The notes under the pieces: model-generated | Seen by the model: only the letters and a program-made list of their open reading frames with translations | What the model was told of the DNA's origin: nothing | The model's database searches: none | Program-made: the position numbers and the translations under genes | Source of the DNA: Vulcanisaeta thermophila | GTDB lineage: Archaea; Thermoproteota; Thermoprotei; Thermoproteales; Thermocladiaceae | Assembly (NCBI RefSeq): GCF_001748385.1 | Contig: NZ_BCLI01000001.1 | Coordinates: 186,001 to 250,000 of the forward strand | Direction: 5' to 3' | Length of the DNA stretch: 64,000 nt | In this document: piece after piece, positions 6,009 through 31,216 of the stretch | Layout: each line of letters begins with the position of its first letter | Numbering within the stretch: position 1 is the stretch's first letter

Positions 6009-6265
6009 CCCTAAGCAATGAGTTAAGGAGGACCATTGAGGAGTTAGTGATGAGGAGGCTCAATGAGGTTAAGGAGAGGGTTGAGACCCTGGGCTTCGTG
6101 AACTCCATAATCGAGGAACTGGGTAAGATGCAGGTAAGGCTTAGTGAGGATGAGGAGGCCGAGGCCAGGGCATACGTGGTTGATGTGCTCTGGTCACTGA
6201 GTAAGAGGGGCGTGGTCTCCATGGATGACGACCTACTGCACTTCACGGTCAGGGCTAGATCTTAA
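6005..6265 (+). CDS. Small helical protein of unknown function
   Basis: An 86-residue acidic, helical protein. It starts at ATG 6005, which overlaps the stop codon of the upstream Cys-cluster gene as ATGA; a GTG at 5990 is possible but less likely. There are no recognisable motifs, membrane segments or cysteines. The C-terminal part (YVVDVLWSLSKRGVVSMDDD) could be a small winged-helix-like unit, but this is not certain. The tight coupling suggests it works with the upstream protein, perhaps as a partner subunit. Confidence 0.6.
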   Translation: MTLSNELRRTIEELVMRRLNEVKERVETLGFVNSIIEELGKMQVRLSEDEEAEARAYVVDVLWSLSKRGVVSMDDDLLHFTVRARS

Positions 6266-6327
6266 CCAATACACATTAATTAATGCACCACTAAATCAAT
6301 AGCGCCCCCGTGCGTGCCCAGTCACCC

Positions 6328-6353
6328 ACCCACCCGGCCAGGGCCGGGTGGGT
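6328..6353. repeat. GC-rich perfect inverted repeat between convergent genes
   Basis: ACCCACCCGGCC (6328-6339), a two-base loop AG, then its exact complement GGCCGGGTGGGT (6342-6353). It sits between the stop codons of the plus-strand gene ending at 6265 and the minus-strand phosphoesterase, whose stop it touches. It could end transcription from either side, although archaeal terminators are usually U-rich. Confidence 0.7.
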
Positions 6354-6928
6354 CATAACGTCATCAAGTTCACATTGACCTCATTACCTACGCTTATCAA
6401 TGCGTAGTGGCCCTCGTAGAGGGGCCCTGGATTCACAACAATAGTATCGCCCACTTTATCCACTCCCCTGGCCTCGTGCACATGACCACATAGTACCAAC
6501 ACGGGCCTCACCTCATGGATTAGCCTAAGTACATCCCTACTTCCAATATGCCTACCATCAAACGCCACATCAACCCTGGTGTTGTATGGTGGGTAATGGC
6601 TCAGTAGTACCAGGGGTCCATTCACGCTCCTCAGCTCATCCCTGTAATTAATGGGTGGTGGGTAACCCATTATGTAGATACTACCCACTCTCACAATCCT
6701 ACCCTCGATTAGGTAATCACGTAATTCACGCCTAAGCCCTGGGTGATCCATATTCCCCAGGACCATGAAGGTGGGCCGCCCCAGAGTGGCTAGTTTCATA
6801 ACGGGTTCGCTGCTCTCCACGTCACCGCTGATCACCACAGCATCGATTTCGCGCCCCCTCAATTCCCTGAGTAGTCTCTCCACGTGGGTTACGGACCCGT
6901 GTATATCGGATACGTGTAGTATATTCAT
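6353..6928 (-). CDS. Metallophosphoesterase (YfcE/MJ0936-like)
   Basis: A 191-residue calcineurin-like phosphoesterase with all metal-binding blocks: DIHG near residue 8, GDVES near 36, GNMD near 58 (replacing GNHD), SHYPPY near 111, and GHVHEARG near 148, followed by VNPGPL. This matches small archaeal phosphodiesterases of the YfcE type, which hydrolyse phosphodiesters using two metal ions. The physiological substrate is not deducible. It is soluble, monocistronic and divergent from rpoD. Confidence 0.85.
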   Translation of the reverse strand: MNILHVSDIHGSVTHVERLLRELRGREIDAVVISGDVESSEPVMKLATLGRPTFMVLGNMDHPGLRRELRDYLIEGRIVRVGSIYIMGYPPPINYRDELRSVNGPLVLLSHYPPYNTRVDVAFDGRHIGSRDVLRLIHEVRPVLVLCGHVHEARGVDKVGDTIVVNPGPLYEGHYALISVGNEVNVNLMTL

Positions 6929-25233: not shown

Positions 25234-25974
25234 TCACTTCAACTGAACACCCATACTCTCAAGGACGCTCTTAAGCATATTCCTAACCTCATTAACATCC
25301 ACAGGCACTATGTTACCCCTGGATGTTGTGAAATAGAACCAATTCAATGAATGGGCAATACCCCTCATCCTCTTGATCCTCATTCTACGGATTGGTATCC
25401 CCAGGTTTGCCATATTCTCATCAAACTCCATCTCAATAACACCATCGAACACATACTCAAGATTACTCATTAAATTACTCACATCCTCAGTGGTTGTGTG
25501 GGCTACAGTTAATGTTAATAAGCCGTATCTCCTCGAGAGGGCCTTCAACTGTTTCAGCAATATTAATAATGCCCTGGGTTCAACATTCACTATTAAGTCG
25601 TTCAGGGAGTCTACCACTAACACCTTTATACTCCTCCCCTGAACCGCATTATTGATTTTACCAATGAATTGGGAGGGCTCTAGGTCCGTGATGTAATCGA
25701 CTATGTTGGGGTTCTTGACCCTATACCTATCGCTTAGGTTGAAGCCATCTATTATAAAGACATTGTTGGTTCCCAGGTCCTCCATAATGGCCGCTGGGTC
25801 ATCATCAAATGCCACGTAGAGTACCGAGTCGCCCCTCTGGATGGCGCTCTTAGCTATTATCTTTACCAGGAGTGTCTTGCCCATGCCAATATCCCCGTTA
25901 ATCAATACCAGGTATCCATAGGGTAATCCCGTGGGTAGTATTTCATTGAGTACTTCGCATTTTAGGAACTCCAT
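25234..25974 (-). CDS. RadA/KaiC-like ATPase
   Basis: A 246-residue single KaiC/RecA-like domain. Walker A is INGDIGMGKTLLVK near residue 28 and Walker B VLVVDSLNDL near 120. The family's GxxYGYLVLI lead-in and RMRGIAHSLNWFYF near the C-terminus support a KaiC-type archaeal ATPase. Such stand-alone domains are common in Crenarchaeota, with roles in signalling or DNA processes that are mostly unassigned. It shares strand and direction with the phosphohexuloisomerase gene upstream. Confidence 0.82.
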   Translation of the reverse strand: MEFLKCEVLNEILPTGLPYGYLVLINGDIGMGKTLLVKIIAKSAIQRGDSVLYVAFDDDPAAIMEDLGTNNVFIIDGFNLSDRYRVKNPNIVDYITDLEPSQFIGKINNAVQGRSIKVLVVDSLNDLIVNVEPRALLILLKQLKALSRRYGLLTLTVAHTTTEDVSNLMSNLEYVFDGVIEMEFDENMANLGIPIRRMRIKRMRGIAHSLNWFYFTTSRGNIVPVDVNEVRNMLKSVLESMGVQLK

Positions 25975-27319: not shown

Positions 27320-29161
27320 CTAGATTAATTCCCTCGTCACGTAGGTGCTCACCAACTTATACGGTACACTTCTACCCTGCACCAAAACCAGCGCCTTGAA
27401 GGGCCCCGTGGTTAGCCATACCAAATCATCACTCGTAATGCCACTTATTGTGGATGCAACATGCGAGGAGAATTGGGCATTGCCGCTGAGTATTATTAAC
27501 GTGCCCATATTCTCCATAATACCAGCCGTTAATGCGTTAAATGGTGGCTGTGCAAGAATGAACATGCTCACACCAAATTTCCTGATCTCCCTAACAATAT
27601 CCTCGAGGGGGTTTGCAACCCCGAGTGCGCTTAATTCCTCAGACATGCCCAGCACGTGGTGTGCCTCATCAATTATTACCAGGTACCTCAGTTGGCAGGG
27701 TGGTTGCTTGCACTCCATCTTTGCCCTGATTAGTAATGTGGAGAGTATTAGGGTTGTTATGAACCTAACAACCTCCTTACTATGAACATTACTTAAATCC
27801 ACCACATAATCGCCATTAAGTAAATCAGCTACGCTCATTAATTCACCATCTCTGTAATACTCAATTAGGGGTGATAATACATTGTAAAGGTTGTAATACG
27901 CCTCCCTAAGTATTAAATCGCCCGATGATATTGAGTTAAGAACCTTAATCAGATCATTGACACTACGCACGTTATTCGTCAGGGCCATCTTAATCAATGC
28001 ACCCTCAGTACCCAATGCAAGGAGTGGGTTCATGAAGGATACCGCGGTTATCAGGGACCAGGAATCCATGTGCGCCGGTTTTAAACGACCCATGTCTATG
28101 GACTTAATATTTAGGATGCGTTTCAACCTGGTGGTGTGCCCGTGCGGGTCTATTATTATTACGTGGATTCTATCGCCGAGGGTGGTCTTTACCTGCTTAA
28201 CGATGCTCATTGCCAGTGTGGTCTTACCGGAGCCTGTGGGGCCTAGGATGGCCACGTGGGGGCTTATGTTTGTTGGGTTCCAATAGACGTAGTTTCCCTC
28301 TAAGTCCTTACCTATTATTGCAAGCCCACGTTCATTATTGGTTAGCGGCATTAGGTGAGGGGTTAGGACAACCAGGTCCAATTCCAGTGAGGGTATTCCC
28401 GAACCTCCGTGGAGCAGGTCCATTATTGAGTACGTGGTGTAGAGTTTTCCCCACTTCATGAATCCCTCAATCTTCGCAGTACTTAGTATTGTTGCGGAGT
28501 AGATTTCCTCGCCCATGTTCATGCGCTTCAGGGTGTTCTCAATCCTCTTATAACCAATGAAGTACTTAATGTGCTTGAGCAGTAGGAATCTACCGTAGTC
28601 CCTAGTGGCCCTGGTCTCAAATACGTTCCTAAGTTCATTATCGGGCCTCAGCATGACCAATACATTAACGTTCTCCAGCCCCCTCCTCATAACCCTATAG
28701 TTTGATTGTATGAGTTCCGTGGTGACTAGGTTAGTGAGCGTGGGGTCGCCCTTGGCCCTGTAGGTGTAATCCATGGATACTAGGTATTTATTGCGGGGCC
28801 AATCCATTAATGCGTACACCAGGGCTGTCAATAGTAATGCGCCTAGTATGATTGCCCTAGCCATGATCATCAGCATTACTAGTAATGCCACAAAAGCCAT
28901 GTTAATGCTCAACCCCCTCCTCCTAATCCTCAGCCTCAGGTGTTTAGCCAGCTCAAACCCATCAATCCCCCTTAACGAAAGCCCCAACTTACTGGCTTCC
29001 TTAATCACATCATCACCCCCATCCCTGGTTACGATTATGTACCTGCCCTGATCAATCACTAGTATGGATTTGCTCATGGATAGTAGTCGTAGGAAGGATC
29101 TACCTCTGATAATGGTCTCCTGAAATTGCGAGTCGGGGCTTAATTGCGTGTTCTCTATCAT
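27320..29161 (-). CDS. HerA/VirB4-like ATPase with N-terminal membrane segment
   Basis: A 613-residue ATPase. A hydrophobic stretch (about 86-118) is probably a membrane hairpin, followed by a soluble domain and a HerA/FtsK-type motor. Walker A is ILGPTGSGKTT at 305-315; Walker B is LVIIDEAHHVLG near 490. FILAQPPFNA supplies the sensor Gln. This arrangement resembles CedB/TedB of the crenarchaeal DNA-import systems, which are VirB4 relatives, but a herA-type housekeeping or conjugation role is possible. It is last of a three-gene minus-strand set. Confidence 0.75.
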   Translation of the reverse strand: MIENTQLSPDSQFQETIIRGRSFLRLLSMSKSILVIDQGRYIIVTRDGGDDVIKEASKLGLSLRGIDGFELAKHLRLRIRRRGLSINMAFVALLVMLMIMARAIILGALLLTALVYALMDWPRNKYLVSMDYTYRAKGDPTLTNLVTTELIQSNYRVMRRGLENVNVLVMLRPDNELRNVFETRATRDYGRFLLLKHIKYFIGYKRIENTLKRMNMGEEIYSATILSTAKIEGFMKWGKLYTTYSIMDLLHGGSGIPSLELDLVVLTPHLMPLTNNERGLAIIGKDLEGNYVYWNPTNISPHVAILGPTGSGKTTLAMSIVKQVKTTLGDRIHVIIIDPHGHTTRLKRILNIKSIDMGRLKPAHMDSWSLITAVSFMNPLLALGTEGALIKMALTNNVRSVNDLIKVLNSISSGDLILREAYYNLYNVLSPLIEYYRDGELMSVADLLNGDYVVDLSNVHSKEVVRFITTLILSTLLIRAKMECKQPPCQLRYLVIIDEAHHVLGMSEELSALGVANPLEDIVREIRKFGVSMFILAQPPFNALTAGIMENMGTLIILSGNAQFSSHVASTISGITSDDLVWLTTGPFKALVLVQGRSVPYKLVSTYVTRELI

Positions 29162-29183
29162 GAAGCCCCTGAGCTTATGATTA

Positions 29184-29390
29184 TTAATCTCGATACCCCC
29201 CCAGGCCTATGGAGGCCTTGCTCACGGCCTCGCCATCGTTTATGAATATCCTCAACGACCTGAGGTTCCTTATGAAGTCGTTTATTAGGATTAGTGGTAC
29301 CACGGTGTTCACTATGACTAGGTATGCTGTGTGGTTCCAAAGGAAGGTTGCTATGGAGATTGCCACTGCCATGAGTAGCTTAGTGTTCAC
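29184..29390 (-). CDS. Small two-helix membrane protein between two HerA/VirB4-like ATPases
   Basis: A 68-residue protein with two hydrophobic helices (about 5-19 and 23-40) and a charged C-terminal third (DFIRNLRSLRIFINDGEA). Its start overlaps the upstream ATPase's end by 11 bases and its stop lies 22 bases before the next ATPase start, so it is part of the operon. Its size and place just before a VirB4-like ATPase recall VirB3 of type IV secretion systems. No sequence similarity was tested, so the analogy is positional only. Confidence 0.6.
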   Translation of the reverse strand: MNTKLLMAVAISIATFLWNHTAYLVIVNTVVPLILINDFIRNLRSLRIFINDGEAVSKASIGLGGYRD

Positions 29391-31131
29391 TCATCATCAC
29401 CCTGCTCAGTATCTTCATGTAATTAACATCTCTAACCGCCGCCATCTCTATGAGCTCCCTGGGTGTATACCCCTCCCTCAATCCCTCATCAATGACGTGG
29501 GGAATTATTATTGGGTTGGCAGCCCTGCCATAGTACCTGGCCAACTCCCTGATCTTATCCTCATCACCCACCTCAAGCATCTTCCTGATTAATTTCCTTG
29601 TGAATTCATGAACAGTGGGGGGTAGCGGTGTGGTCATGCTCATGTCTATGTATGCCCTGACCGTGAATGACCTATTATGGTAGTAAAACTCGAGCACGTC
29701 AAGGTTCAGTAGGTTCTCTGGTTCCTTATTAACCAGTCTACTCGCCTCAATGGCTGAGGAACCGCTTAACCTAAATACTGCGTATTGTGGGGCCACGTCC
29801 AGTACGTTTCGCTTAATATCCAATGGGTTTTGGGTTATGAGTATTAGCACGGTCCCGCTATGCCTACCCTCCCTGAGTATCTGCTCTACTATGGTTTCGC
29901 CAACGACACCCCTATTCACTATCCTGTGCGCCTCATCAATAACTATCAATGCGTTGTTTAGTAATTCCCTGTGTATTTCGAGGAATGATTGTATGAAGAG
30001 TATGGATGCTGTTTGTGATATTTCAAAGAGTGGTGACATGTTTATAACGAGGAACCTGGACCTGAGGGCTTGACCGCTTAACCTACTACCCATTAGGGCT
30101 GAGAATAGGAGCTTCCTAATCCTCCTCTTAACGGCCATTATCGCATTGAGGTAGTCAATACGCTTGTACAGTTCACTCATTAGGTCCAGGTTTCTTAGTA
30201 GGTCAAGTAGTGTGGCTTCATTGTTCAATCCCTCAAGGGCCTTCTCAAGGACCTCGAGCTGTATGAATGTTAAATTACCCGTCTCCTCACCGTACATGTA
30301 GGCCACGGCCTGCACGGCGCTGGCTATGACCTCACTAGCCCTATGGCTTGGCAGGATTAGTGGGTTTACGCTAATGTCAATGCCGGGTATTGCCACGTAA
30401 CCCTTACCAATGGCCATCACGGAGTACTCCCCAGTCATGTCGAAGACAAGGACCCTGTTGAATAATCCACGGTTTAATGCGTGGTTTATTAGGATCTTTG
30501 CCAGGGTTGATTTGCCCGAGCCCGTTGACCCAAGGATTATTAGGTGTGTGTTTAGGTCTATGTCTATTGGGTAGAATAGCGTCGAGACCATACCCCCTGG
30601 GGCAGGCGCCCTTGGTAACTCACTACCCAGCACACCCACTAGACCTGCATCATTAAGTTCATCCTCGCAATTAAGGAATTCATCGATATTAAGCCCTGAG
30701 CCACGTGTGTACATTGTGTATTTAATTTCGTTACCCCGTCTGCACAGGGTCACTGCATTGATGGGTTTACCACGTGTATTGATCCCCAACGTATTGATGC
30801 TGACCCTGGTGTACATCCTTACTGAGTTCTCCACCACCTGCCTAGTAACATCACTGGGTAATGGTTCCAGGTATTTGCTGAATGACCTTATTAATCTACT
30901 AAGCCTCGCCTCATAAAATCTCTTTAGGATTACACGTCCCACAGTGTGTATTAGTACGAGGCCTACCTCATCATTTATAATGGTGGCCCTCAAGCCATTG
31001 CCTATGGACTCGATTATGCCCAGGGCATTAATGTTATCTACCACCCTGAAGCCCACCATTAACTTACCATTAATCTCCAGGTAACTCGACCTCGAGTGAG
31101 ACATCCACCTCCACCCAACCTTCATAGTCAT
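29380..31131 (-). CDS. HerA-like ATPase (DUF87)
   Basis: A 583-residue hexameric-type motor ATPase without clear membrane helices. The first 180 residues are a beta-rich domain. Walker A is ILGSTGSGKSTLAK (Gly 201 onward), Walker B ALIVIDEAHRIV near 390, followed by LILITQNP with the sensor Gln. HerA proteins work with the NurA nuclease in end resection, but no nurA is present; association with DNA transfer is an alternative. The true start is unclear: ATGs at 31104 and 31059 are in frame, and a leaderless small frame overlaps the beginning. Confidence 0.8.
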   Translation of the reverse strand: MTMKVGWRWMSHSRSSYLEINGKLMVGFRVVDNINALGIIESIGNGLRATIINDEVGLVLIHTVGRVILKRFYEARLSRLIRSFSKYLEPLPSDVTRQVVENSVRMYTRVSINTLGINTRGKPINAVTLCRRGNEIKYTMYTRGSGLNIDEFLNCEDELNDAGLVGVLGSELPRAPAPGGMVSTLFYPIDIDLNTHLIILGSTGSGKSTLAKILINHALNRGLFNRVLVFDMTGEYSVMAIGKGYVAIPGIDISVNPLILPSHRASEVIASAVQAVAYMYGEETGNLTFIQLEVLEKALEGLNNEATLLDLLRNLDLMSELYKRIDYLNAIMAVKRRIRKLLFSALMGSRLSGQALRSRFLVINMSPLFEISQTASILFIQSFLEIHRELLNNALIVIDEAHRIVNRGVVGETIVEQILREGRHSGTVLILITQNPLDIKRNVLDVAPQYAVFRLSGSSAIEASRLVNKEPENLLNLDVLEFYYHNRSFTVRAYIDMSMTTPLPPTVHEFTRKLIRKMLEVGDEDKIRELARYYGRAANPIIIPHVIDEGLREGYTPRELIEMAAVRDVNYMKILSRVMMSEH

Positions 31132-31216
31132 TGGTCATTGGATAACTGTGGATGCCCTGCATGCTCATAACTGGCCTCTTCCTGGTGAGCCAGGGGAGTA
31201 GCTTGGCTATCTTCAT
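31070..31216 (-). CDS. Putative overlapping small ORF upstream of the HerA-like ATPase
   Basis: A 48-residue frame beginning MKIAKLLPWLTRKRPVMSMQ and ending in an acidic beta-like stretch (WVEVDVSLEVELPGD). Its ATG at 31216 lies about 25 bases after a minus-strand TACTTAAG, the usual leaderless spacing, whereas the ATPase start at 31131 would have an 85-base leader. It overlaps the ATPase frame by up to 62 bases. It could be a real small protein, a leader peptide, or the ATPase's N-terminus joined by a frameshift. Confidence 0.4.
   Translation of the reverse strand: MKIAKLLPWLTRKRPVMSMQGIHSYPMTNDYEGWVEVDVSLEVELPGD

What the first reader, a model, noticed from the sequence alone, without database searches (positions are those of the whole stretch)
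27320..31216. ATPase, small two-helix protein, membrane-linked ATPase: a VirB3-VirB4-like order
Two HerA/VirB4-type motors flank a 68-residue two-helix membrane protein with overlapping or near-adjacent ends. The 613-residue ATPase has an N-terminal membrane segment, like CedB/TedB of crenarchaeal DNA import. A small two-helix protein just before it parallels VirB3-VirB4 in type IV secretion. The polytopic CedA/TedA partner is not in the window, so a complete system cannot be shown. This may be a variant of the import machinery or an undescribed pair of DNA motors.
Basis: partly seen in the sequence, partly recalled or inferred. Interest (0 to 1): 0.75.

Follow-up and report, generated by a model that had tools for sequence, protein, structure and literature searches.

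The report
Duplicated archaeal DNA-transfer motor pair
In a hot-spring archaeon, two neighbouring ATP-driven DNA motors look like a second, separately located copy of the motors that power DNA exchange between cells; the small "in-between protein" is only the front end of one motor, cut off by a one-base frame change.

Summary
The two ATPases and the 68-codon ORF are in the sequence, but the ORF is not a separate protein. In five sister Vulcanisaeta genomes, three of them single-contig, the same residues are the first ~65 amino acids of one 694-707-aa ATPase. In the window the two frames meet inside a G7 run (29196-29202), the only G/C run of 7 or more in 64 kb; every other gene compared is in one frame. 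The "VirB3-VirB4 gene order" is therefore a frameshift, most likely an assembly error or a very recent mutation. What remains is real. The membrane ATPase is a CedB/TedB-type (VirB4-like) motor. Its upstream partner groups with the HerA-like ATPase of Ted loci, not with housekeeping HerA. The pair is syntenic across Vulcanisaeta and was not found full-length in other genera. The genome also has what looks like a complete Ted system about 430 kb away (TedA-like channel, TedC pilin, TedB, HerA-like ATPase, ParA), so this pair is a second, unlinked motor set. Best explanation: a paralogous Ted-type DNA-translocation motor pair. Transport direction and channel partner are unknown.

The parts
29380..31131 (-). 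HerA-like ATPase (P0003, 583 aa; orthologues begin at its Met10, window 31104). Unassigned N-terminal ~185 aa, then ATPase core and C-terminal part; no membrane segment. Closest to the HerA-like ATPase of Ted loci.
30508..30531 (-). Walker A of the HerA-like ATPase (GSTGSGKS, residues 201-208)
29926..29946 (-). Walker B of the HerA-like ATPase (IVIDEAH, residues 396-402)
29184..29390 (-). 68-codon ORF (P0002): N-terminal membrane part of the TedB-like ATPase, in a different frame from the rest in this assembly; overlaps the upstream ATPase gene by 11 nt, as the intact gene does in relatives
29196..29202 (.). C7 (+)/G7 (-) run where the two frames meet; the only G/C run of 7 or more in the window
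27320..29161 (-). TedB-like (CedB/TedB-type, VirB4-like) ATPase (P0001, 613 aa as an ORF; its frame stays open upstream to about 29206; intact orthologues 694-707 aa)
28802..28906 (-). second membrane segment or hairpin of the TedB-like ATPase (residues about 86-120)
28220..28243 (-). Walker A of the TedB-like ATPase (GPTGSGKT, residues 307-314)
27659..27679 (-). Walker B of the TedB-like ATPase (VIIDEAH, residues 495-501)

Best explanation
The locus is a two-gene operon: a soluble HerA-like ATPase, then a ~695-aa membrane-anchored CedB/TedB-type (VirB4-like) ATPase whose first ~65 residues appear as a separate small protein only because of a one-base frame change at a G7 run. The pair is a second, diverged copy of the motor part of the Thermoproteales DNA-exchange (Ted) machine, kept in the core chromosome of Vulcanisaeta away from the Ted locus. 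Shown: the frame break and its absence in sister species, the conserved order and synteny, kinship of the membrane ATPase to CedB/TedB-type motors and of its partner to Ted-locus HerA-like ATPases, intact nucleotide-binding motifs, and a Ted-like locus with channel and pilin elsewhere in the genome. Inferred: the membrane ATPase forms a ring anchored by its two membrane segments under a VirB6/TedA-like channel, and the soluble ATPase works in tandem with it, feeding or pulling DNA, as an alternative or additional motor set for DNA exchange.
For: Frame break: frames -3 and -1 meet at 29196-29202; other compared genes in one frame; no other G/C run of 7 or more in ~83 kb of other G000 DNA or ~90 kb of relatives; the run is not conserved in orthologues; coding-type substitutions on both sides. 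Kinship: the membrane-ATPase profile aligns with TedB over 481 columns including the pre-ATPase domain and second membrane region (probability 99.9, E 7e-33); its best hits outside the family are TedBs; tree places it with TedB 91/90 and AU rejects grouping with HerA, p 0.011. The HerA-like ATPase aligns with the Ted-locus HerA-like ATPase over 250 columns (99.5, E 1e-22), groups with those proteins and two others 96/96, and AU rejects grouping with HerA, p 0.007. The same order, HerA-like ATPase overlapping TedB, occurs in the Ted locus of G011 (L053). Complete Ted-like locus in the genome. All four genus genomes at least 90% complete hold both TedB and this pair.
Against: TedB is only mildly preferred over CedB as nearest relative (AU p 0.312 for the alternative). 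The first ~130 residues of the membrane ATPase have no detectable sequence similarity to the N-termini of TedB or CedB. The partner's ~185-aa N-terminal domain is absent from Ted-locus HerA-like proteins and matches nothing. No channel or pilin gene is linked to the pair, and function is untested. The pair evolves fast (41-49% identity against roughly 64-84% for most neighbours) and is degraded in one draft genome (G002).
Confidence: 0.7

Rival explanations
1. The 68-aa protein is a real stand-alone VirB3-like subunit and the locus is a true VirB3-VirB4 gene arrangement, produced by gene fission in this lineage.
For: The ORF has a plausible GTG start overlapping the upstream gene, two hydrophobic helices, is conserved in sequence, and VirB3 genes are typically small, two-helix and adjacent to virB4 (PMC12857230).
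Against: The residues are part of one ORF in five sister species. The downstream ATG is not a conserved start and homologous sequence continues upstream of it. The break lies exactly in the longest G/C run of the window. No match to VirB3 or solved chains.
Confidence: 0.06
2. The frame change is real in the organism: an early inactivating mutation, or a site of transcriptional slippage or programmed frameshifting at G7 that yields both a short and a full-length product.
For: A long homopolymer is a plausible slippage site; the pair is degraded in one other draft genome (G002: deletion of about 500 codons and several frame breaks); nothing else in the locus is broken.
Against: The run is absent from all orthologues, so no conserved recoding site. 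Single-base errors in long homopolymers are the commonest long-read artefact (general knowledge). The remaining 613 codons and the partner gene are intact.
Confidence: 0.25
3. The two ATPases are ordinary DNA-repair HerA helicases or antiphage HerA-type motors, unrelated to DNA transfer.
For: HerA-family and antiphage models (mad8, HerA) match both ATPase cores.
Against: Own HerA-type proteins at C1:452, 618 and 687 kb score 56-192 bits against the thermoprotean HerA model versus 36-40 for this pair. AU tests reject grouping either protein with HerA. The neighbours are core metabolic genes (polyamine, SIS-domain, archaemetzincin and methyltransferase genes by motif, Pfam and NCBIfam), not nucleases or defence genes.
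Confidence: 0.1

Closest known systems
TedB (VirB4-like ATPase of the Thermoproteales Ted DNA-exchange system; PMC9905601)
   Same: Length (~690 aa), N-terminal membrane segment plus a second one before the ATPase, homologous pre-ATPase domain and ATPase core
   Different: Only 18-23% identical; separate clade at 100/100; not linked to tedC or tedA; N-terminal ~130 residues not alignable
HerA-like ATPase gene of Ted loci (PMC9905601, Fig. 1g)
   Same: ATPase core, grouping 96/96 with the window's soluble ATPase; in one Ted locus (G011) it also overlaps tedB in the same order
   Different: The window protein has an extra ~185-aa N-terminal domain and a longer C-terminal part; 21-25% identity
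CedB and CedD (paired VirB4-like import ATPases of Sulfolobales; PMC11868833)
   Same: Two FtsK/HerA/VirB4-superfamily motors used together, CedB with an N-terminal membrane hairpin; CedD and CedB are top NCBIfam matches of the membrane ATPase
   Different: Scores 65-75 bits against cut-offs of 600-700; no detectable N-terminal homology; the window partner has no membrane segment
VirB3-VirB4 fusions of bacterial T4SS (CagE, Campylobacter; PMC4643968)
   Same: Two-helix membrane segment at the N-terminus of a VirB4-like ATPase

Membership tests
VirB3 | separate small gene next to virB4 | tested here: not met
   One ORF with the ATPase in five sister species; frame break at a G7 run in the window
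VirB3 | two transmembrane helices | tested here: inconclusive
   Hydropathy gives one strong segment (22-40) with a weaker one before it in the window copy, two in some orthologues
VirB3 | sequence match to VirB3 profiles or solved VirB3 chains | tested here: not met
   No VirB3 match in Pfam, NCBIfam or PDB at permissive limits
VirB3 | VirB3 fold and contact with VirB4 N-terminal domain | not testable with these tools
TedB | VirB4-like ATPase core with Walker A/B | tested here: met
TedB | homologous pre-ATPase domain with membrane segment | tested here: met
   481-column profile alignment to TedB, E 7e-33; region 134-380 aligns without the core
TedB | falls inside the TedB clade | tested here: not met
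   Sister group of TedB (91/90), not inside it; a CedB-sister position is not rejected
TedB | located with tedC/tedA | tested here: not met
   Ted-like genes lie about 430 kb away; flanks of the pair are metabolic genes
CedB / CedD equivalogs (NCBIfam) | score over the curated cut-off | tested here: not met
   74.9 vs 600 (CedD), 65.3 vs 700 (CedB)
Housekeeping HerA (NurA partner) | groups with HerA | tested here: not met
   AU p 0.011 and 0.007 against; other HerA-type genes in the genome
Complete Ted system at this locus | pilin, channel and ATPase together | tested here: not met
   Only the motor pair here; pilin and channel at C1:661-664 kb
Mobile element / conjugative plasmid | relatives on plasmids or viral contigs | tested here: not met
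   No match in either collection

The most novel reading that the evidence does not exclude
Vulcanisaeta runs its DNA-exchange channel with two alternative motor pairs (for example one for import and one for export), and the N-terminal membrane hairpin shared in position by CedB, TedB and this ATPase is the archaeal counterpart of VirB3, fused to the motor, which is why a VirB3 gene was reported absent in archaea.
Probability: 0.15. Interest if true: 0.7.

Novelty: new variant of a known kind. Interest (0 to 1): 0.4.

Why it matters
It removes an apparent archaeal VirB3-VirB4 gene order that would otherwise mislead annotation. It also shows that one archaeal genus keeps a second, unlinked pair of Ted-type DNA motors beside what looks like a complete Ted system. 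That both motor types recur together in two places hints that the HerA-like ATPase is a working part of the machine rather than a repair gene that happens to be nearby. This can be tested genetically and structurally.

Tried and rejected
Separate VirB3-like protein: rejected by fused orthologues and the frame break. Housekeeping HerA: rejected. Mobile element: no plasmid or viral relatives. Antiphage system: mad8/HerA models match, but through the ATPase core shared by the superfamily, and no defence genes were seen in the flanks by name or Pfam. Loss of the gene in G001: rejected, the fragment ends at a contig edge. Homology of the N-terminal hairpin with TedB or CedB, and of the partner's N-terminal domain with CedB or CedD-like proteins: not detected. 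The large Ted-locus membrane protein as TedA: not supported. The AU test of the two window ATPases as one clade did not finish.

Full report
OBSERVATION. The window is C1:186001-250000 of a 2.02-Mb, 99.8% complete genome G000. Its genus-level relatives include records named Vulcanisaeta. The last fits independently, because its Ted-type genes lie where Pcal_0765/0766 should be.

THE SMALL PROTEIN IS A FRAGMENT. The 68 residues are conserved in nine relatives at the same place (37-46% identity). In G010, G006, G008, G004 and G011 they are the first residues of one 694-707-aa ATPase ORF. The window's ATPase frame, read upstream of its annotated ATG, continues as GGIEINNHKLRGF, homologous to LSGIEIDGKRVIGL and the like in relatives, while the ATG itself is not conserved. 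tblastn with the intact orthologues shows residues 1-65 in frame -3 and 65-end in frame -1, meeting at 29196-29202. That is a C7/G7 run, the only G/C run of 7 or more in 64 kb; none occurs in about 83 kb of other DNA read from this genome or about 90 kb of relatives, and it is not conserved at this site. All other window genes that could be compared with relatives are in one frame. Three JCM draft genomes have frame breaks in these genes at different places, so they do not support an ancient split. An assembly error is most likely; a recent real mutation cannot be excluded without reads.

WHAT THE MEMBRANE ATPASE IS. It matches DUF87/HerA, with NCBIfam CedD (75 bits) and CedB (65 bits) on top, far below their cut-offs. 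The orthologue profile aligns with TedB over 481 columns (probability 99.9, E 7e-33), including a pre-ATPase region that aligns without the core (97.3, E 2e-11); no such match exists with the CedB N-terminal region. In a 45-sequence tree it is sister to TedB (91/90), then CedB; AU rejects HerA (p 0.011) but not CedB (p 0.31). It is best called a CedB/TedB-type motor, probably nearest TedB. Its best hits outside the family are TedBs, including one next to tedC.

WHAT THE PARTNER IS. The 583-aa protein has a ~185-aa N-terminal domain without matches, then a HerA-type ATPase. Its closest relatives are the HerA-like ATPases of Ted loci (99.5, E 1e-22; clade 96/96 with two further proteins). AU rejects grouping with HerA (p 0.007). 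In the G011 Ted locus the HerA-like gene overlaps tedB in the same order as here.

DISTRIBUTION AND CONTEXT. Full-length copies of both genes occur only in the genus among the 45 genomes of the order searched. A scan of 84,980 species genomes found confirmed relatives only in Vulcanisaeta, apart from short P-loop matches in two bacteria. Neighbouring genes are syntenic core genes. No plasmid or viral relatives were found. The pair diverges faster (41-49% identity) than most neighbours (roughly 64-84%). In draft G002 the membrane ATPase lacks about 500 residues and its partner is broken.

THE MISSING PARTNERS ARE IN THE GENOME. On the same contig, about 430 kb away, lie TedB (C1:647.9-650.0 kb; profile E 0), a HerA-like ATPase (655.8-657.1 kb), a TedA-like protein (661.2-662.0 kb; its family aligns with Pyrobaculum TedA at 94%, E 1e-7, and sits beside TedC in two Vulcanisaeta), a TedC pilin (663.7-664.2 kb; E 2e-6; family alignment 95.7%) and a ParA-like ATPase. 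All four genus genomes at least 90% complete have both TedB and this pair.

MECHANISM. Shown: a two-gene motor pair whose reading frames overlap (so translation is probably coupled), with intact nucleotide-binding motifs. Inferred: by analogy with TedB, CedB/CedD and VirB4 (PMC9905601, PMC11868833, PMC12857230), the membrane ATPase sits as a ring under a VirB6/TedA-like channel, and the soluble ATPase hands DNA to it or takes it up. Because the genome keeps another such pair with its own channel genes, this pair is probably an additional motor set for DNA exchange; direction and partner are unknown.

VIRB3. VirB3-VirB4 fusions are known in bacteria (PMC4643968), and VirB3 was reported absent in archaea (PMC11868833).

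Noticed in passing
L049:9950-15316 (G000:C1 ~650-655 kb), L051:6926-11260, L052:7274-11569, L172:3348-6092: Large protein (914-1788 aa) with a multi-helix N-terminal membrane part, no Pfam match, conserved in Ted loci of Vulcanisaeta and a sister genus (next to tedC there; profile match 99.7%, E 4e-25); not recognisably TedA.
   Followed up: partly
L113:6711-7685 and 6128-6739 (G000:C1 ~662-664 kb): A RadA/Rad51-like recombinase gene (Pfam Rad51) and a small protein with a SWIM-like Cys/His motif lie between the TedA-like gene and tedC.
   Followed up: no
L039 (G002:C7:45000-64000): The pair is degraded in this draft genome: the TedB-like gene lacks about 500 codons and the partner has several frame breaks.
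   Followed up: partly
L088, L089, L090 (JCM draft genomes): Frame breaks in these two genes at differing sites, with other split genes in the same loci; looks like draft sequencing errors.
   Followed up: partly
window 25234-25974 (-): KaiC-domain ATPase three genes downstream of the pair; role unknown.
   Followed up: no
L168:7333-9555 (G026:C3): A 740-aa membrane-linked ATPase, present twice with equal scores in this genome, is the best match of the HerA-like partner outside the genus.
   Followed up: no
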